From Streptomyces sp. NBC_01241 (GTDB lineage Bacteria > Actinomycetota > Actinomycetes > Streptomycetales > Streptomycetaceae), in assembly GCF_041435435.1 (NCBI RefSeq), contig NZ_CP108494.1, positions 7,040,501-7,104,500 on the forward strand: a stretch of 64,000 bases of DNA, given 5' to 3'. The notes under the pieces are model-generated. The model was not told the origin of the DNA and did no database searches. It was given only the letters and a program-made list of their open reading frames with translations. The position numbers and the translations under genes are program-made. Of the stretch, positions 31,508 to 41,866 are shown in pieces. Position 1 is the first letter of the stretch; every line of letters begins with the position of its first letter.

Positions 31508-32905
31508 ATGGCAGCACCGGCAGCTCCTGAGCACGTGGAACGCATCGTCATCGAGAACTGTTCGATCGCGACCGTCGACGCCGACGACACCGAGTACGCG
31601 TCGGGCCATGTCGTCGTCGCGGGCAACCGCATCGAGTCCGTCGGCGCCGGCCGGGCACGCGAAGGCCTGGAGAACGTCGTGCGCCGCATCGACGGCACCG
31701 GACATCTGGTCACCCCGGGCCTGATCAACACGCATCACCACTTCTACCAGTGGATCACTCGCGGCCTCGCCACCGACCACAACCTGTTCGACTGGCTGGT
31801 CGCGCTGTATCCGACCTGGGCGCGCATCGACGAGCCGATGGTCCGCGCCGCCGCGCAGGGCTCGCTCGCCATGATGGCCCGCGGCGGTGTCACCACCGCC
31901 ATGGACCACCACTACGTCTACCCGCAGGGCTCCGGGGATCTTTCCGGAGCCATCATCGGGGCCGCCCGTGACATGGGCGTACGGTTCACCCTCGCCCGGG
32001 GTTCCATGGACCGCAGCGTGAAGGACGGCGGACTGCCGCCGGACTTCGCCGTCGAGACGCTCGACGGTGCGCTCGCCGGCACCGAGGCGACCATCGACGC
32101 GCACCACGACGACTCCTTCGACTCGATGACCCAGGTCGCCGCCGCACCTTGCTCCCCGTTCTCCATCTCCACGGAACTGCTGCGACAGGGAGCCGAGTTG
32201 GCCCGCCGCAAGGGAGTGCGCATGCACACCCACGGTTCGGAGACGGTGGAGGAGGAGCGGTTCTGCCACGAGCTGTTCGGGATGGGCCCGACCGACTACT
32301 TCGAGTCGACCGGCTGGCTCGGCGACGACGTGTGGATGGCGCACTGCGTCCATATGAACGACTCCGACATCGCCGCCTTCGCCCGCACCGGAACGGGCGT
32401 CGCGCACTGCCCCTCGTCCAACGCCCGCCTCGCCGCCGGCATCGCCCGGGTGCCCGACATGCTCGCCGCGGGCGTTCCCGTCGGCCTCGGCGTCGACGGC
32501 ACCGCGTCCAACGAGGCCGGCGAACTCCACACCGAGCTGCGCAACGCGGTCCTCATCAACCGCCTCGGCGCCCACCGCGAAAGGGCCCTGAATGCCCGTC
32601 AGGCCCTGCGCCTGGGAACGTACGGTGGCGCCCAGGTCCTCGGCCGCGCCGGCCAGATCGGCTCCCTGGAACCCGGCAAGCTCGCCGACCTGGTGCTCTG
32701 GAAGCTGGACACCCTCGCCCATGCCTCCATCGCCGACCCGGTGACCGCGCTCGTCTTCGGCGCCGCGGCCCCCGTCACCCTCTCCCTCGTCAACGGCAAG
32801 CCGGTCGTCGAGGGCAACCACCTGATCACCGCGGACGAGGACGCCATCGCCCGCGCCACCCGCGACGAGGCCCGCCGCCTCGCACGGATCGCCGCCGGAG
32901 CCTGA
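31508..32905 (+). CDS. 8-oxoguanine/guanine deaminase, amidohydrolase family
   Basis: A 465-residue amidohydrolase. Metal-site motifs are in order: NTHHHFYQWITRGLATDHNL, HTHGSETVEEERF, MAHCVHMND and GLGVDGTASNEAGEL. This arrangement matches the cytosine/guanine/8-oxoguanine deaminase group, and the position after uricase supports a purine role. It would convert guanine to xanthine or 8-oxoguanine to urate. The ATG at 31508 has GAGAAGGAAG upstream. The 210-bp gap after uricase holds no obvious terminator, so it may be in the same operon. Confidence 0.85.
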   Translation: MAAPAAPEHVERIVIENCSIATVDADDTEYASGHVVVAGNRIESVGAGRAREGLENVVRRIDGTGHLVTPGLINTHHHFYQWITRGLATDHNLFDWLVALYPTWARIDEPMVRAAAQGSLAMMARGGVTTAMDHHYVYPQGSGDLSGAIIGAARDMGVRFTLARGSMDRSVKDGGLPPDFAVETLDGALAGTEATIDAHHDDSFDSMTQVAAAPCSPFSISTELLRQGAELARRKGVRMHTHGSETVEEERFCHELFGMGPTDYFESTGWLGDDVWMAHCVHMNDSDIAAFARTGTGVAHCPSSNARLAAGIARVPDMLAAGVPVGLGVDGTASNEAGELHTELRNAVLINRLGAHRERALNARQALRLGTYGGAQVLGRAGQIGSLEPGKLADLVLWKLDTLAHASIADPVTALVFGAAAPVTLSLVNGKPVVEGNHLITADEDAIARATRDEARRLARIAAGA

Positions 32906-32927
32906 CACTCCGGGGCACCCCCGATAC

Positions 32928-32961
32928 CGGTCGGCCGAGGGGGACGGCCCTCGGCCGACCG
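32928..32961. terminator. Perfect 14-bp stem terminator
   Basis: CGGTCGGCCGAGGG and complement (32928-32941, 32948-32961) with loop GGACGG, 23 bp after the deaminase stop. Confidence 0.8.
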
Positions 32962-32988
32962 CCGAGGACCGAACGAGGTCCGCGGCAA

Positions 32989-33032
32989 CCGGTGCGGGGG
33001 CGCGTACGTCCGCGTACGTGCCCCCGCACCGG
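32989..33032. terminator. Second hairpin, 20-bp stem with one mismatch
   Basis: Arms 32989-33008 and 33013-33032 (CCGGTGCGGGGGCGCGTACG against CCGGTGCGGGGGCACGTACG read from the other strand), loop TCCG. It probably ends transcription from the convergent TetR gene or backs up the first hairpin. Confidence 0.7.
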
Positions 33033-33157
33033 CGACCCGAGCTGCCGCACCAGCTGCACGTCCTGCCCCCTGCCTGCGCCAAGGCCCCACGTGCACCGCC
33101 TCCCTGACACCCACGTCGCCGCAGACGTGTACCCGACCGGAGGAACCGCCGGGGCAG

Positions 33158-33751
33158 CTACGCCCGCCCGGCCTCGCCCTCTCCTGCGAACAGCAGCTCC
33201 TGCGCCACTGCCGCTGCCGTGCGCGTCTGCTCCGGCCAGCCGATCCCCAGCATGGTCGCCGAGCCGTAGGCGAGAGACACAATGGTGAAGCCCAGCTCGG
33301 CGGCGGCCTGCGCATCGAGGTCCGGCCGTTCCGACAGCGTCGCCGACGCGATGGTGTCGGCGACGCTGCGGTACATCACCAGCAGGGACGACTCATTGGC
33401 GGGCTTCAGCGCCTCGTAGGCGATGAGCTGGTCGAGCACGATGTCATCGCGGTCGCGCTGCTGCCAACGGGCCCCGAACAGGACGTCGATGACGACGCGG
33501 CGCCGCTGCCCGACCGGAGCCGCGGCGATGGCGTCGATGAGTTCGGTGGCGTACCGCGTCGACAGCACGCTGATCAGAGCCCGCAGTTGCTCGTCCTTGT
33601 TGCCCAGGTAATGCCGCACGAGCCCGCGGGTCCAGCCTGCGCGCGCGGCGATCTTGTCGACGGTGACGCCCTGCACCCCGTACTCGGCGACGCAGTCGGC
33701 CAGGGCGTCGAGCATCTCGGCACTGCGCTGACTGGCGAGGCTCGGGCGCAT
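33158..33751 (-). CDS. TetR-family transcriptional regulator
   Basis: A 197-residue regulator. The N-terminal HTH reads LASQRSAEMLDALADCVAEY, VQGVTVDKIAARAGWTRGLV and RHYLGNKDEQL. The C-terminal ligand domain is helical with no assigned ligand. The start at 33751 is fixed by AGGAGG six bases upstream; a longer form from 33790 is unlikely. It is divergent from the amidohydrolase-permease pair, and a 29-bp perfect palindrome lies between them. It is the probable repressor of that pair. Confidence 0.85.
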   Translation of the reverse strand: MRPSLASQRSAEMLDALADCVAEYGVQGVTVDKIAARAGWTRGLVRHYLGNKDEQLRALISVLSTRYATELIDAIAAAPVGQRRRVVIDVLFGARWQQRDRDDIVLDQLIAYEALKPANESSLLVMYRSVADTIASATLSERPDLDAQAAAELGFTIVSLAYGSATMLGIGWPEQTRTAAAVAQELLFAGEGEAGRA

Positions 33752-33802
33752 GAAAAACCTCCTGGTGCGGATCCGTACCAAGTTTGTCATACTGCCAACC
33801 CC

Positions 33803-33831
33803 CAGTTGTTTGTCAGAAAGACAAACAACTG
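33803..33831. promoter_or_regulatory. Operator palindrome for the TetR regulator
   Basis: Arms CAGTTGTTTGTC and GACAAACAACTG are perfect complements around AGAAA. The site lies in the divergent intergenic region, 22 bp before the amidohydrolase start. Its length and position fit a TetR-family operator controlling both directions. Confidence 0.75.
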
Positions 33832-33853
33832 TGGCGTGACTAGGAGGCCAGCG

Positions 33854-35188
33854 ATGCTCTACTCCACCCACCGACCGGAACGCACCGCTTTGATCGGGGT
33901 GAACGTGCTCGACGCCCGCGGCGGGGAGCCGGTCAGGGATGCCGTGCTCGTCATCGAGGACGGGCGGATCGCCGAGATACTCGCCCGCACGCACTACACG
34001 ACCAGGCCCGGTACCGAGGAGCTTCAGCTTCAGGGCATGTGGGTCACGCCTGGTCTGATCGACGCGCACGTCCACTTGGCGGGTGGTCGCGCCGGCATCG
34101 ACGACCAGGAGCTCGGGGTCATCGCCGAGAACCGCACCGTGCGCGCCATCCGCGCCGTCTGCGAGGCGCAGACGCTGCTCAAGCACGGCTTCACCACGGT
34201 CCGTGATGTCTCGTGGAACGGCCTGTACCTCAAGCGCGTCTTCTTCGAGCAGAAGCTCCCCGGGCCGAAGGTGATCGCCTGCGGGCCGGGTCTCACTCGC
34301 ACCGGCGGCCACGGCGACCTCTTCCAGTTCACGCCCGACTACGTGCGTGAGAACGGCGTCTTCGGCCTGGTGGCCGACGGTGAGCAGGAGATCGTCAAAG
34401 CCGTCCGCTACCTGCTGCGTGAGGGGGCCGACGCGATCAAGATCTTCCTGTCCGGCGGTGACAACTGGCCGCACGACCGCAATGGCGACATCCAGTACTC
34501 GGCTCGCGAACTCGCCGCCGCCGTAGAAGAGGCGCACCGGCAGACCGGCACGATCGTGATGTGCCATGCGGAGAGTCGCGAAGCCATCGCGATGGCGGTG
34601 GAGGCCGGGGTCGACACCATCGAGCACGGCGAGGATCTCGACGCCGACCTGGCGAAGACGATGGCCGACGCCGGCACGATCCTCGTCCCGACTCTGCAGC
34701 TCATCGCCAACTGGCACCGCGACTTCATGCCCCTGGACGGCGACCGCCGGCCGCCGCTGCGGCCGGACGCCTTCCTGTACCGCGACCTGTACGAGGGGCG
34801 GGACGACTCCTTCGCGGACGACTACTCCGGCTCCGCGGTCCGTAGCTTCCAGCTGGCGCTCGAGTCGGGAGTGAAGATCGCCCTCGGCTCCGACACCGTC
34901 TACGAGCCGCTCACCCCCTTCGGCGAGTACAGTGCGCTGGAGTTCCGGGCCCTTGTCGAGGCAGGCATGACCGTACGCCAGGCGATCACCGCCGCGACCG
35001 TCATCAGCTCCGAGGCGGTCGGGATGTCCCATGTGATCGGCACTGTCGAGGTCGGCAAGCAGGCCGACCTCCTCGTTGTCCGAGCAGACCCCACCACCTC
35101 CGCCGACGTCCTCGCCGACGCGTCCAACATCCATCTGATCTTCTGCGACGGCAGGCTGACCGTGAAGGACGGGAAGTTCGAGTGGTGA
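33854..35188 (+). CDS. Metal-dependent amidohydrolase
   Basis: A 444-residue amidohydrolase of the imidazolonepropionase-like/prolidase-like group. It has TPGLIDAHVHLAGGRAGIDD (HxH), a possible carboxylated Lys in DAIKIFLSGG, MCHAESREA and IEHGEDLDAD (His ligands), and LGSDTVYEPLTPFGEYSALE (Asp). No signal peptide is present, so it acts in the cytoplasm. TAGGAGG precedes ATG. Its stop overlaps the permease start, so uptake and hydrolysis of one compound are coupled. The substrate is unknown; an acyl-dipeptide, imide or carboxamide would fit the family. Confidence 0.85.
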   Translation: MLYSTHRPERTALIGVNVLDARGGEPVRDAVLVIEDGRIAEILARTHYTTRPGTEELQLQGMWVTPGLIDAHVHLAGGRAGIDDQELGVIAENRTVRAIRAVCEAQTLLKHGFTTVRDVSWNGLYLKRVFFEQKLPGPKVIACGPGLTRTGGHGDLFQFTPDYVRENGVFGLVADGEQEIVKAVRYLLREGADAIKIFLSGGDNWPHDRNGDIQYSARELAAAVEEAHRQTGTIVMCHAESREAIAMAVEAGVDTIEHGEDLDADLAKTMADAGTILVPTLQLIANWHRDFMPLDGDRRPPLRPDAFLYRDLYEGRDDSFADDYSGSAVRSFQLALESGVKIALGSDTVYEPLTPFGEYSALEFRALVEAGMTVRQAITAATVISSEAVGMSHVIGTVEVGKQADLLVVRADPTTSADVLADASNIHLIFCDGRLTVKDGKFEW

Positions 35189-36672
35189 CCACCGAAGGCA
35201 AGGAGTTCGGGACTGCGGCGAGCACCGAAGGCAAGGAGTTCGGGACTGCGGCGAGCACCGAAGGCAAGGAGTTCGGGACTGCGGCGAACATCGAAGGTGT
35301 CGGGACTGCGGCGAACAGCGAAGGGAAATCCACGGCCGGCTTCCGCCGCGTCCTGACGCTCAGGCATCTGGTCGCCTTCGGGCTGGCCTACCTCGCGCCC
35401 ACAGTCGTCTTCAACTACTACGGCATCATCACCGACCTCACCGACGGCATGATGGCGCTCGCTTATGTGGTGACGCTCGTCGCGATGTTCTTCACGGCCT
35501 ACTCGTACGCTCAGATGGTGCGGGCCTTCCCCGTCTCCGGCTCGGCCTACAGCTATGTGCGCAAGGCGGTGAACCCCTGGCTCGGCTTCGGCACCGGCTG
35601 GGTCATGCTGCTCGACTACCTGCTGCTGCCAATGGTCTGCTACCTGCTTTTCGGCATCTACATGAACGAGTACGTGCCGTCGGTCCCGGTGGCGGCCTGG
35701 GTGATCGCGGGTGCGTTCCTGGGCGCGCTGGTCAACGTCCTGGGCGTGAAGGTGTCGGGGCGGCTCAACGTGGTCCTGGTCTCGGCCCAGATCCTCTTCT
35801 GCCTGAGCCTGATCGGTCTGATCACCGCCTACGTGCTCGGCGGCGACGGCAGCGGCAGCCTGCTCGTCCCGCAGGCTCTCGTGGACGTCGCACGGCTCGA
35901 CCCGGGCAATATTCTGTGGGCCGCTTCGATCCTTTCGGTGTCGTTCCTCGGCTTCGACGCGGTGTCCACACTCGCGGAGGAGACGAAGGACGCCCGAAAG
36001 ACCGTGCCGCGCGGCATCCTGATCGTCTGCGTCGGCGCCGGCGTGGGCTTCGCCGTCATCTCGTACTTCCTGCAGATCGCCTGGCCGAGTGCGCCATCGG
36101 CGATGAAGGATCCCGACGTCGGCATTTTCGAGCTCCTTCCCCGCATCGGCGGCGAAGGCTTGTCGACAGCGTTCCTCGTCACCGACCAGACCGCGAGCAT
36201 CTTGTGTGCCATGGCCGCGATCGCCGCGGTGTCACGCGTCCTGTACGGCATGGGGCGTGACCGTCTGCTCCCCGTCCGCTTCTTCGGGCACCTCTCCCCG
36301 CGCTTCGGGACGCCGGTGAACAACATCGTGTTCACCTCGGCCATCGCTCTCACGGCCGTGTTCTTCTCCGACAACCTGCTCGGTGCGGCCTCGCTGACAA
36401 GCTTCGGCGCGATCACCGGGTTCCTGCTCGTCAACTTCTCGGTCATCAACCACTACTACTTCCGCGAACGGCGCCGCACAGGGACGGATGCTGTGCGCTT
36501 CCTCGTCATGCCGGCGATCGGCATCGCGGTGAACGTCGTCCTGTGGGTCAATATCGACACCTCCGCCAAGTTGCTCGGGCTCGGCTGGCTCACGCTCGGC
36601 GGCATTTATCTCGGTGCCGTCACCAAGGGATTCCGGCTGCTGCCGCAGCCGATCCTCGACGAAGACGGATGA
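35182..36672 (+). CDS. APC-superfamily permease with a repeat-built N-terminal tail
   Basis: A 496-residue amino-acid/polyamine/organocation permease with about 12 membrane helices (HLVAFGLAYLAPTVVFNYYG; MVRAFPVSGSAYSYVRKAVN; ASILSVSFLGFDAVSTLAEE; MAAIAAVSRVLYGMGRDRLL). FPVSGSAYSYVRKA is a typical APC signature. The first 50 residues are unusual: three copies of TEGKEFGTAAS-like units plus two decayed ones. GTGGTG at 35182 overlaps the amidohydrolase stop. It probably imports the amidohydrolase substrate. Confidence 0.88.
   Translation: MVTTEGKEFGTAASTEGKEFGTAASTEGKEFGTAANIEGVGTAANSEGKSTAGFRRVLTLRHLVAFGLAYLAPTVVFNYYGIITDLTDGMMALAYVVTLVAMFFTAYSYAQMVRAFPVSGSAYSYVRKAVNPWLGFGTGWVMLLDYLLLPMVCYLLFGIYMNEYVPSVPVAAWVIAGAFLGALVNVLGVKVSGRLNVVLVSAQILFCLSLIGLITAYVLGGDGSGSLLVPQALVDVARLDPGNILWAASILSVSFLGFDAVSTLAEETKDARKTVPRGILIVCVGAGVGFAVISYFLQIAWPSAPSAMKDPDVGIFELLPRIGGEGLSTAFLVTDQTASILCAMAAIAAVSRVLYGMGRDRLLPVRFFGHLSPRFGTPVNNIVFTSAIALTAVFFSDNLLGAASLTSFGAITGFLLVNFSVINHYYFRERRRTGTDAVRFLVMPAIGIAVNVVLWVNIDTSAKLLGLGWLTLGGIYLGAVTKGFRLLPQPILDEDG
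35191..35330 (+). repeat. 33-bp tandem repeats inside the permease start
   Basis: ACCGAAGGCAAGGAGTTCGG begins each unit. Units are 35191-35223, 35224-35256 and 35257-35289; a 27-bp shortened unit follows at 35290-35316, then a partial one. The unit is a multiple of three, so copy number can change without a frameshift. Confidence 0.9.
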
Positions 36673-36809
36673 TGCGTCCCGTCCCGGCTGCCCCACCGCC
36701 GCCGTGGTCGAGGCGGTGGCGGCGGGCGCGGCCCGAGCCGACGGGGACGGGAGTGGCTCCGCAGAGGTGGGTGAAGGCTGCTTCGGAGCGGGGCCGAGGC
36801 GCGCGGGCT

Positions 36810-37118
36810 TCAGCAGTTCAGATACGCGACGTGGATCCAGACACCCGTGGGGCCGCCCCACAGGTCACCCATGACCCAGTTGCCCTGCTGGCCACGGCGG
36901 TTGAGGTTCTGGCCCCGGTTCACCTGGCCCAGGACCGGGTACTCGTTGCCGGGTCCGCCGCGGAAATTCACCCCGTTGTCGTTGACGGTGCAGACCGCGG
37001 CCGGCGCCTTCGCCACCCGTGCGGCGGCGGGGCTCTGCGCGGCCTGGGCGGCGGGGCTCAGGGCCAGGCCGAGACCGGCGGTCAGCACCGTCGCGGCCAG
37101 CATCATCTTCTTCACCAT
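36810..37118 (-). CDS. Secreted SH3-like domain protein
   Basis: A 102-residue protein with a signal peptide (MVKKMMLAATVLTAGLGLAL to AQAA) and a bacterial SH3 region (VNFRGGPGNEYPVLGQVNRG; WVMGDLWGGPTGVWIHVAYL). Two Cys (AVCTVND and the final NC) could form a disulfide. Such small proteins bind cell-wall components. It lies just after the permease gene on the opposite strand. Confidence 0.8.
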   Translation of the reverse strand: MVKKMMLAATVLTAGLGLALSPAAQAAQSPAAARVAKAPAAVCTVNDNGVNFRGGPGNEYPVLGQVNRGQNLNRRGQQGNWVMGDLWGGPTGVWIHVAYLNC

Positions 37119-37297: not shown

Positions 37298-38164
37298 TCA
37301 CGGATTCGGCGGGGCGTCCATCCGGTAGCTGTCGCCGTACACCCGCCACCGCAGCGGTGTCTCCAGCCCGAACCTGCCCTCGTGCACGAACACCCGCTGG
37401 GCCGTCTCGACCCGGCTGGTGTCGGAGTGCGAGCGCTCCTTCCGCATCGCCGCGACGCGGGCGTCGAGAAAGGCGTTCAGGTAGGCCGCCTCGTCGCCGC
37501 CGCGCGCCGGGGGCGGGACCGAGTCGATCGCCTCGCGCCGGATCGTCCGGAATCCGACCGTGCCGTCGGAGTCGTCGTACCCGTGCATCACATAGGCGTC
37601 GTAGTAGATGAACTGCCCCAGGGCGCCGAGTCCGTCCGCCTCGGCCCGGGTGACCGCGGGGTCGAAGTACGACCGGTCGCGCTCGGCGTCCTGCGCCGCC
37701 CGGAAGGCCGGGTCGGTGGCCGCCGCGGCCCATGCTTCGGTGAACGGGCCGCCGAGTCCGTCGTGCGCGTCGCTGCCCAGCACGGCTCGCAGCGCGGGGA
37801 GGAACCGTTGCAGGGGATTGCTCGGACGCGCCGCCGTGTACCGCTCGACGACCTTCAGCATGTCGCCGGTGCCGGAACAGAAGCCGATGATGCCCGCCGT
37901 GTAGCCGCGGCCGTCGTCGATGTCCTCGATGTACTCGTACTGCGCCTTCCAGTCGAGTGAGGAGTTCTCCGCGCTGGAGACCAGTTGCATGGCGATCTCC
38001 TTCTTCGCCGGATCGTCGAGCCCGGATTCCGGTGCTTCCCCGGCGGACCGGGGCGCCGATCCGGCACCCGGTCCCGACCCGGATCCCGTGCATCCGGAGA
38101 GCATGGAGACGGCCATGACGGCCGCCGCGACGGCGGTGGACAGGCGACGAGAAACGATCTTCAC
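37298..38164 (-). CDS. GH46 chitosanase, lipoprotein
   Basis: A 288-residue chitosanase. The N-terminus has a lipobox (AVSMLSGC), so unlike the free secreted Streptomyces enzymes it should be lipid-anchored. Residues from about 50 match GH46: KKEIAMQLVSSAENSSLDWK holds the catalytic Glu, and YIEDIDDGRGYTAGIIGFCS the catalytic Asp. FIYYDAYVMHGYDDSDGTVG is another family block. It would hydrolyse glucosamine-rich chitosan at the cell surface, complementing the chitinase 4 kb away. Confidence 0.9.
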   Translation of the reverse strand: MKIVSRRLSTAVAAAVMAVSMLSGCTGSGSGPGAGSAPRSAGEAPESGLDDPAKKEIAMQLVSSAENSSLDWKAQYEYIEDIDDGRGYTAGIIGFCSGTGDMLKVVERYTAARPSNPLQRFLPALRAVLGSDAHDGLGGPFTEAWAAAATDPAFRAAQDAERDRSYFDPAVTRAEADGLGALGQFIYYDAYVMHGYDDSDGTVGFRTIRREAIDSVPPPARGGDEAAYLNAFLDARVAAMRKERSHSDTSRVETAQRVFVHEGRFGLETPLRWRVYGDSYRMDAPPNP

Positions 38165-39659: not shown

Positions 39660-40722
39660 TCAGCGCACCACGCGTCCCCGGAGCACGATCCGGCTCGGAT
39701 GATCCAGCGCGGCCGGGTCCAGGGTCGGATCGGTGGCGTACGCGACGAGGTCGGCGGGCGCGCCGTCCGCCAGGCCTGGCAGACCGAGCCAGGCACGTGC
39801 TGTCCAGGACGCCGCGCCGAGCGCCGCGTGGGCCGGCAGGCCGGCGCGTACCAGCCAGTCCATCTCGCCCGCGACGGTCCCGCACGGGAAGGAATCCGTC
39901 CCGGCCAGCACCGTCACCTCCGCTTCGTGGGCCGCCCGGACATTGCTGAGCATGGTGTCCCAGCCGGCCAGCCACAGATCACGGCGCACGCTCGGCTCCC
40001 GTGCCCGCATCGCGTCCGCCTTCGCGCCGAAGACGCTCAGTGTGGGCACGAACGCCGTGCCCTGGGCGGCCATCCGGTCCAGGAGCGCCGGGTCCAGATG
40101 CATGCCGTGCTCCAGGCTGTCGGCGCCCGCCAGTACGGCATTGCGGGTGCCCTCGGCGGTCTGGCAGTGCACCGCCACCTTGCCGCCCGCCGCGTGCACC
40201 GCCTCCACCACCGAGGTCAACAGCGCGAGCGGTACGGCGGGTTCATCGAGAGCCCCAGTCACCGACGACCTTGCACCACCCGGACGAAGCCGCCGCCTCC
40301 TCCACGGCCGCCCGCACCAGCTCCGCCTCGCTCACATCCCGTCCGAAGCCGGGGAAGAACCGGCCGGGTGTGGCCAGCCAGCGCCCCGCCGAGGTCACGC
40401 GCGGGAGTCCGGGGTCCTTCTCCACCCAGGCGGGCATCCGCTGCGAAGTGCCGGGGGTGCGCACCGCGAGTACCCCGGCGTCCCGGTGCTCGCCCAACTG
40501 CTTGCGCAGCAGCTCCTCGCCGAAGGGCGCGCCCGGCTCAAGCGCCCCGGGATGCGTGTGCACATCGACGAGCCCGGGCAGCAGCCAGCCGCCGTCGACG
40601 ACCGTCTCCGCGGCCCGGCCCGCGAGCCCTCCCGGCGGCCTGCCGGCACGGAGCACCTCGCCGTCGATCCAGAACTCGCGCTCCTCGCGTTCAGGCAGCA
40701 CAACCCCACGTACGCACAGCAT
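39660..40722 (-). pseudogene. Amidohydrolase split by a one-base frameshift
   Basis: The N-terminal part (40722 down to about 40250) begins MLCVRGVVLPEREEREFWID and has LLPGLVDVHTHPGALEPG. It breaks at CKVVGDWG. The C-terminal part continues in the next frame from LDEPAVPLALLTSVVEAVHA, with VAVHCQTAEGTRNAVLAGAD, SLEHGMHLDPAL and LAGTDSFPCG, ending at 39660. One extra T near 40250 (GGGGCTCTCGAT) accounts for the break. Joined, the protein is about 353 residues with a full set of amidohydrolase metal ligands. It may be recent decay or a base-calling error. Confidence 0.75.
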
Positions 40723-40873
40723 CAGCCGACCGTACGTCACCCCCCACCTTCCGGCCCAAAGAGCACGACCCACACCGGCACATTGCGGAACGTTCCTCTC
40801 CACCCTCTTGTCGGCGACCTTCGCGCCATGCGATACAGGTCTGGACCATTGCTGCCGGATGGAAGGCACGACC

Positions 40874-41866
40874 GTGCAACGCCCCCACGTAACCGCTGCG
40901 TTGGCCTGCTCCGCCGCCGCCCTGCTCCTCGTTACGCTCACCGCCTGTGATTCCGCCCCCGAGGCCGACATCCAGAAGCCCACGACCCCGGACCATGTGA
41001 CAGCGCAGGCCAGTAGCGCCACCTCCGCGCACATCATGTGGGAGCAGGCCGCCGACAACGAGGCGGTCACCGGTTACGAGGTCTACCGCCAGGGCGAGAA
41101 GGTCAAAACCGTCCCGGCGACCAAGGTGATGACCGACATCGGCGGGCTGACCGCCTCGACCGCGTACACCTTCACCGTTCGCGCCCGCGACGCCGCCGGG
41201 AACCTCTCCGCGCCGAGCGCCGCCGCAGCCGTCACCACACCCGCCCCGACCCCTGCCGACCACGAGCCGCCGACCCGCCCGGTGAAGCTGCGCGGCGCCG
41301 CGGACGGCAGCCGGGCCGTGAACCTCTCCTGGGGCGGCTCGACGGACGATGTCGGCGTCACGTCGTACGACATCTACCAGGAGGACTCCCGGATCCACAG
41401 CGTGCCCGGCACGCGAACGACCGCGCATGTGACCGGACTGCGCCCCGGCACCGTCTACACGTTCACCGTCCGCGCCCGCGACGCCGCCGACACCTCCTCG
41501 CCGGACAGCAATGCCCTCGACCTGACCACCGCTTCCGCGCCGGGCGCACCCGCGAGTACCGCCCCCACGGACCTGCGGATCAGCAACCGCGTCCAGGGCA
41601 AGGAGTACGCCGTCGACCTGGACTGGAAGCAGCCCGACACGGGCGGCGAGATCCCGGCGTACCAGCTCTTCATGGACGGCCGGCTGACCACCACCATCGT
41701 GTGGGGCGCCACCCCGCCCGCGGGCCGGGCGAGTTACCGGCTCACCGTCAGCGACCCACGCGGCACCCGCTACTCGATGAAGATCCGCGCCAAACTGCCG
41801 GACGGGAAGTGGGGGGACTTCTCCGCCCAGCGCACGGTCGTCCTCGGCGACCGACTTGGCGAGTGA
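40874..41866 (+). CDS. Lipoprotein with three fibronectin type III domains
   Basis: A 330-residue exported protein. The signal peptide ends in a lipobox (LLVTLTAC). Three FnIII modules follow: residues about 25-110 (SATSAHIMWEQAADNEAVTG; AYTFTVRARDAAGNLSAPSA), 120-210 (SRAVNLSWGGSTDDVGVTSY) and 220-325 (YAVDLDWKQPDTGGEIPAYQ). No catalytic domain is present. The GTG at 40874 is preceded by GGAAGG; ATG at 40859 is possible. It sits directly before the chitinase and shares FnIII architecture with it, so it may help retain the enzyme or chitin at the surface. Confidence 0.75.
   Translation: MQRPHVTAALACSAAALLLVTLTACDSAPEADIQKPTTPDHVTAQASSATSAHIMWEQAADNEAVTGYEVYRQGEKVKTVPATKVMTDIGGLTASTAYTFTVRARDAAGNLSAPSAAAAVTTPAPTPADHEPPTRPVKLRGAADGSRAVNLSWGGSTDDVGVTSYDIYQEDSRIHSVPGTRTTAHVTGLRPGTVYTFTVRARDAADTSSPDSNALDLTTASAPGAPASTAPTDLRISNRVQGKEYAVDLDWKQPDTGGEIPAYQLFMDGRLTTTIVWGATPPAGRASYRLTVSDPRGTRYSMKIRAKLPDGKWGDFSAQRTVVLGDRLGE

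What the first reader, a model, noticed from the sequence alone, without database searches (positions are those of the whole stretch)
33158..36672. Self-contained TetR-controlled uptake and hydrolysis cassette of unknown substrate
A TetR regulator, a 29-bp perfect operator, an amidohydrolase and an APC permease form a compact unit with overlapping genes. It lies directly after the purine operon, but no AllR-type or TCAACA site was seen. It may process an acyl-amino acid, imide or hydantoin-like compound linked to nitrogen scavenging.
Basis: partly seen in the sequence, partly recalled or inferred. Interest (0 to 1): 0.6.

Follow-up and report, generated by a model that had tools for sequence, protein, structure and literature searches.

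The report
Imported uptake cassette replacing purine permease
A soil bacterium has swapped the purine importer at the end of its uric-acid breakdown cluster for a small self-regulated gene set that probably imports an unknown amide and cuts it for nitrogen; the parts are ordinary, but the swap and the predicted substrate type are new leads.

Summary
In detail: a TetR regulator, a 29-bp palindrome with perfect 12-bp arms, a metal-dependent amidohydrolase (AH) and an APC permease form a compact unit at 33158-36672.

Three things change its meaning. (1) The unit is an import. In 16 of 16 sister Streptomyces loci that I fetched, homology stops exactly at 33165, inside a pbuX-type xanthine permease gene. 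Only that gene's first five codons remain here, with start GTG changed to GGG, so the cassette replaced the purine cluster's permease. TetR's stop codon lies in the remnant. (2) AH is very rare: 1 of 246 genus genomes, 1 of 396 phylum genomes. Its relatives (mostly Mycolicibacterium) sit directly behind an orthologous APC permease (6 of 12) or a PotD-like binding protein (6 of 12), usually with a cupin-AraC regulator (11 of 12), never with this TetR. (3) AH is not hydantoinase-like. It belongs to the prolidase/ochratoxinase group, but positions that hold the leaving amino acid in relatives are acidic in all 13 AH sequences (D203, E240). The likely substrate is an amide of a cationic amine without a free alpha-carboxylate, such as an acylated polyamine. 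The substrate is inferred, not shown.

The parts
33151..33165 (+). remnant of the pbuX/NCS2 xanthine permease gene: first five codons, start codon GTG changed to GGG
   Evidence: 16 of 16 fetched sister loci have the intact start of the permease here, with GTG; homology ends at 33165
33158..33751 (-). TetR-family regulator, 197 aa; its last codon and stop codon lie in the permease remnant
   Evidence: PF00440 30.1 bits against cut-off 24; BetI models well below cut-off; junction
33782..33800 (.). possible second, weaker operator (2 mismatches to the core)
   Evidence: function inferred
33803..33831 (.). 29-bp inverted repeat, 12-bp perfect arms, 5-bp spacer; presumed TetR operator
33854..35188 (+). 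amidohydrolase (AH), 444 aa, COG1228/M38 type; metal ligands H72, H74, K196, H238, H258, D347; subfamily residues D203, E240, R149
35182..36672 (+). APC amino acid/amine permease, 496 aa, overlaps AH by 7 bp
   Evidence: PF00324 and PF13520 above cut-off; 53-66% identical to the permeases beside AH relatives
35190..35324 (+). 33-bp and 27-bp tandem repeats coding an N-terminal extension of the permease (TEGKEFGTAAS units)
   Evidence: absent from the six homologous permeases; the unit occurs only here in the genome
36673..36790 (.). right border zone: sister homology resumes between 36784 and 36791
   Evidence: L073, L074, L075

Best explanation
A horizontally acquired, self-regulated catabolic cassette. 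Shown: it replaces the pbuX-type permease of the purine cluster in this Streptomyces lineage, and AH with an uptake protein is a recurrent pair. Inferred: TetR binds the palindrome between the divergent genes and represses both its own gene and the AH-APC operon until the substrate or its product binds it. The APC permease imports a small amide, and AH, a binuclear metal enzyme with a carboxylated lysine (K196), cuts it into an acid and an amine used as nitrogen source. Because subfamily-specific acids (D203, E240) replace the residues that hold the leaving amino acid in relatives, the leaving half is most likely a cationic amine without a free alpha-carboxylate. The PotD-like binding protein that stands in for the APC permease in half of the related loci fits an amine ligand.
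For: Import: left homology ends at 33165 in 16 of 16 fetched sister loci, each with the permease there; AH in 1 of 246 genus genomes, TetR in 1 of 246; cassette GC 0.67 against 0.70 for the window. Pairing: APC directly upstream of AH in 6 of 12 loci, PotD-like protein directly upstream in the other 6, cupin-AraC downstream in 11 of 12. Operator. Enzyme: six metal ligands and H153 invariant in 13 of 13. D203 against Val in 5 of 5 aligned solved relatives, E240 against Tyr, Tyr, His, His, His. The ochratoxinase paper places Val253 and His289, the equivalent positions by my alignment offset, at the leaving group's side chain and carboxylate by docking. Binding protein: the two acids aligned to PotD D168 and E171 are kept as acids in 9 of 9.
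Against: No ligand, activity or binding data. The AlphaFold model is weak (mean pLDDT 66; 73-172 and 203-208 under 50), so the pocket could not be inspected. A subfamily-specific Arg149 (Gln, Gln, Thr, Ala, Thr in the five relatives) means the pocket is not simply acidic. The binding protein has lost the residues aligned to PotD D257 (Gln in 8 of 9, Thr in 1) and W255, so it is not a standard polyamine binder. The binding protein is not in the window. No sigma-70-like promoter was found. No TetR relative with a known ligand was found.
Confidence: 0.5

Rival explanations
1. AH is a prolidase or N-acyl-amino-acid hydrolase of the Sgx9260b type, and the APC permease imports the dipeptide or acyl amino acid.
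For: Closest solved relatives are 3mkv and 3feq; best NCBIfam model is a Xaa-Pro dipeptidase. Related M38 enzymes cleave N-acyl-proline and N-acyl amino acids.
Against: Model score 225 against cut-off 500. The carboxylate-contacting Tyr/His is Glu in 13 of 13, and the side-chain pocket Val is Asp in 13 of 13.
Confidence: 0.25
2. The cassette functionally replaces the lost purine permease and serves purine or ureide nitrogen (for example ureido compounds).
For: It sits exactly where the pbuX permease was, after the urate and 8-oxoguanine genes; no NCS2 gene remains in the window. One related locus, L012, has another amidohydrolase, allantoinase-like to my eye, 3 kb upstream of its AH module.
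Against: By eye, no purine genes beside AH in the other five related loci whose genes I listed. The permease is APC, not NCS2. The cassette has its own regulator and palindrome. Whether another purine permease exists elsewhere in the genome was not searched.
Confidence: 0.12
3. Detoxification: AH and TetR respond to a foreign amide (antibiotic, mycotoxin or agrochemical), with the permease as exporter or importer.
For: The structural group includes ochratoxinases and, more distantly, molinate and phenylurea hydrolases; sporadic distribution fits an accessory trait.
Against: APC permeases and PotD-like proteins are mostly uptake systems for amino acids and amines (recalled); pairing with one or the other in 12 of 12 related loci points to nutrition.
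Confidence: 0.1
4. Hydantoin or imide utilisation.
For: Only the superfamily and the presence of a permease.
Against: Allantoinase AllB model 36 bits against cut-off 358; D-hydantoinase aligns over 63 residues only.
Confidence: 0.03

Closest known systems
Sgx9260b/Sgx9260c prolidases and N-acyl-proline hydrolases (3mkv, 3feq/3n2c), COG1228/M38
   Same: fold, metal ligands, TGGH loop, carboxylated-lysine strand
   Different: E240 for Tyr, D203 for Val, a new invariant DNWPHDRN loop and R149
Aspergillus niger ochratoxinase and bacterial ADH3
   Same: same structural group
   Different: their His289 and Val253 (ochratoxinase numbering), docked against carboxylate and side chain of the leaving Phe, correspond to Glu and Asp here
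APC permease/AH/cupin-AraC clusters of Mycolicibacterium and a Firmicutes MAG
   Same: AH 51-70% identical, APC 53-66% identical, adjacent on one strand
   Different: gene order reversed (APC before AH), AraC instead of TetR, half of the loci use a PotD-like binding protein
pbuX-type NCS2 xanthine permease behind 8-oxoguanine deaminase in Streptomyces
   Same: occupies the same chromosomal place
   Different: unrelated transporter family; replaced here

Membership tests
Xaa-Pro dipeptidase (NCBIfam NF051886) | score above curated cut-off 500 | tested here: not met
   225 bits, two stretches
Amidohydrolase superfamily subtype I / COG1228-like | HxH, carboxylated Lys, two His, Asp metal ligands | tested here: met
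   H72, H74, K196, H238, H258, D347 invariant in 13 of 13; ligand scheme from PMC11342369
COG1228 dipeptidases and acyl-amino-acid hydrolases | Tyr or His two residues after the beta-metal His, contacting the substrate carboxylate | tested here: not met
   E240 in 13 of 13; Tyr, Tyr, His, His, His in five solved relatives
Cyclic amidohydrolases (hydantoinase, allantoinase, dihydropyrimidinase) | full-length match to their models | tested here: not met
TetR family | N-terminal TetR_N domain above cut-off | tested here: met
   30.1 against 24 bits
BetI (choline-sensing TetR) | score above equivalog cut-off | tested here: not met
   46 against 201 bits
APC superfamily amino acid permease | Pfam AA_permease domains | tested here: met
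   PF00324 111.6 and PF13520 100.1 bits
A named APC transporter of known substrate | score above any NCBIfam cut-off | tested here: not met
   best TIGR00909 121 against 557 bits
TetR operator | specific binding by this TetR | not testable with these tools
   only position, symmetry and uniqueness

The most novel reading that the evidence does not exclude
AH founds an undescribed branch of the prolidase/ochratoxinase group that cleaves amides of cationic amines (for example gamma-glutamyl- or acyl-polyamines), fed alternately by an APC permease or by a PotD-like binding protein that has lost one of the classical polyamine contacts. In this Streptomyces the module was re-wired to a TetR switch and inserted in place of the purine permease, the regulator taking its last residue and stop codon from the destroyed gene.
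Probability: 0.3. Interest if true: 0.55.

Novelty: new variant of a known kind. Interest (0 to 1): 0.4.

Why it matters
It gives a natural before-and-after comparison: a catabolic cluster whose permease has been exchanged for an unrelated, separately regulated import unit, with the left border known to the base. It also points to a testable new specificity in an enzyme group studied for mycotoxin removal and acyl-amino-acid synthesis, with two residues to mutate. The recurring exchange of transporter and regulator around one enzyme gives clues to the substrate that the window alone could not.

Tried and rejected
Hydantoin, imide or housekeeping function: rejected on family scores. BetI: below cut-off. 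Riboswitch or RNA family in 32800-37000: none at gathering score. tRNA-targeted insertion: no tRNA in the window. Plasmid or phage carriage of AH: no match at 1e-50 in plasmids, one 27% match in an unannotated phage record, none in viral contigs. Operator core in the 12 AH-bearing loci: none. TetR relatives in the 12 AH-bearing genomes: best 33% identity, in L022, with no AH or APC gene seen in the 3.6 kb held. Structure model: right fold group but unreliable around the active site, so not used for pocket claims. Literature for acetylputrescine plus amidohydrolase plus Streptomyces: no paper; a combined TetR/amidohydrolase/permease search showed nothing on this unit in its listing. The E-value floors of 1e-60 and 1e-80 would miss distant relatives; one search used exact peptide patterns and would miss them too.

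Full report
What is there. TetR (33158-33751, minus), AH (33854-35188, plus) and an APC permease (35182-36672, plus) are all open and share third-position GC of 0.89-0.90. Between the divergent starts lies a 29-bp inverted repeat at 33803-33831, AT-rich in a 70% GC window. A 12-bp arm appeared in 1 of 20,000 shuffles of that intergenic stretch, and the 19-bp core occurs once in the genome with no or one mismatch. A second site with two mismatches lies in the same intergenic region at 33782-33800. No sigma-70 consensus promoter was found, which means little in Streptomyces. I take the repeat as the TetR operator by inference.

The cassette replaced a purine permease. A 6.7-kb DNA query around the unit matched 169 of 238 relatives, own included. 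I fetched 16 loci chosen from the top of that ranking. In all 16 the left homology ends at window 33165. In all 16 the next gene there is an NCS2 permease with a GTG start. Two of these proteins were scanned and both pass the curated cut-off of the xanthine permease model pbuX, 516 and 513 bits against 414. The window keeps only the first five codons, 33151-33165, with GTG changed to GGG. The TetR stop codon (33158-33160) and its last alanine codon lie inside this remnant. On the right, homology resumes between 36784 and 36791 in the three fetched sisters that carry the next small gene (L073, L074, L075); that border is fuzzy. In those three the replaced interval is about 2.5-2.6 kb and also holds a GH46 chitosanase copy. 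None of the 16 carries a TetR or APC match, and AH gives only two weak matches, to other genes. No NCS2 gene is found anywhere in the window. Whether one exists elsewhere in the genome was not searched.

AH is rare. At strict E-values it was found in 1 of 246 genomes of the genus, 1 of 396 of the phylum, 7 of 248 of the genus of the Mycolicibacterium locus L010, 1 of 251 of that family and 1 of 348 of the phylum of the Firmicutes MAG. Each count includes the centre genome. A pattern scan of 84,980 species gave 12 loci: 11 from Mycolicibacterium and related mycobacteria at 65-70% identity and one Firmicutes MAG at 52%. TetR was found in 1 of 246 genus genomes.

The company AH keeps. In 6 of the 12 loci an orthologous APC permease lies directly upstream (L010, L011, L013, L014, L016, L021). 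In the other 6 a PotD-like binding protein does (L012, L015, L017, L018, L019, L020); three of the APC loci also have that binding protein nearby on the other strand. A cupin-AraC regulator follows AH in 11 of 12. So hydrolase plus uptake is the constant, while transporter type, gene order and regulator vary. The window is the only case seen with TetR and with AH before APC.

The enzyme. AH belongs to the COG1228/M38 group: its best solved relatives by sequence are 3mkv, 3feq, 2qs8, 3mtw and 9kov, and the model, though weak (mean pLDDT 66), matches the same group by fold. Metal ligands H72, H74, K196, H238, H258, D347 are invariant in 13 of 13. E240 sits where the five aligned relatives have Tyr, Tyr, His, His, His, and D203 where all five have Val. 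In the ochratoxinase paper, docking puts the carboxylate of the leaving amino acid at His191, His287 and His289 and its side chain against Val253 and others. By the offset from the carboxylated Lys246 and metal ligand His287, Val253 and His289 correspond to D203 and E240; this equivalence is mine. Both are acids in all 13. That argues against a leaving group with a free alpha-carboxylate and for a cationic amine. Against a simple reading, R149 is also specific to this subfamily, so an anionic acyl half such as glutamyl is possible.

The binding protein as a hint. Its nearest solved relatives are putrescine and spermidine binders. In 9 of 9 sequences the two acids aligned to PotD D168 and E171 are kept as Asp, whereas D257 is Gln in 8 and Thr in 1, and W255 is Thr. 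The PotD numbering and roles are recalled. The protein looks like an amine binder that recognises only part of a polyamine. It is not present in the window, so this is indirect.

Permease N-terminus. The APC permease carries a 33-bp tandem repeat at its start (35190-35324), absent from the six homologous permeases aligned; the repeat unit was found nowhere else in the genome. No other in-frame ATG, GTG or TTG stands out between the GTGs at 35182/35185 and the conserved core (read and the sequence), so the extension is probably translated.

Verdict. A real, compact, imported uptake-and-hydrolysis cassette. The hydantoin/imide idea is not supported; the nitrogen idea is open. The replaced permease and the exchange of transporter and regulator around one hydrolase are the new points. 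Substrate, operator binding and regulation are inferred.

Noticed in passing
window 39660-41070, minus strand: A second amidohydrolase gene appears split into two overlapping reading frames (40243-41070 and 39660-40262), only the second of which matches Amidohydro_1; probably a frameshifted pseudogene or a sequencing error.
   Followed up: partly
sister loci L073-L088, start of the pbuX permease: The N-terminal 10-40 residues of the displaced permease vary strongly between species and in some (L078, L085) are short repeats of the type AEGS/AEGT; the unrelated APC permease at this place in the window also has an N-terminal repeat.
   Followed up: no
L073, L075, L076, L077, L079, L082, L086, L087, L088: Nine of the 16 fetched sister stretches also hold part of a second NCS2 permease (about 57-60% identical to the displaced one) upstream of the 8-oxoguanine deaminase; the window has none.
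   Followed up: no
window 37298-38164 and L073-L088: Nine of the 16 fetched sister stretches have two GH46 chitosanase copies in this neighbourhood, four have one and three none; the window has one.
   Followed up: partly
window 32928-32961: G+C-rich inverted repeat with 14-bp arms just after the 8-oxoguanine deaminase gene, a likely end of the purine transcript.
   Followed up: no
window 33100-33150: The displaced permease's upstream region, ribosome-binding motif included, is still present and now points into the 3' end of tetR, so any remaining promoter there would give antisense RNA to tetR (inference).
   Followed up: no
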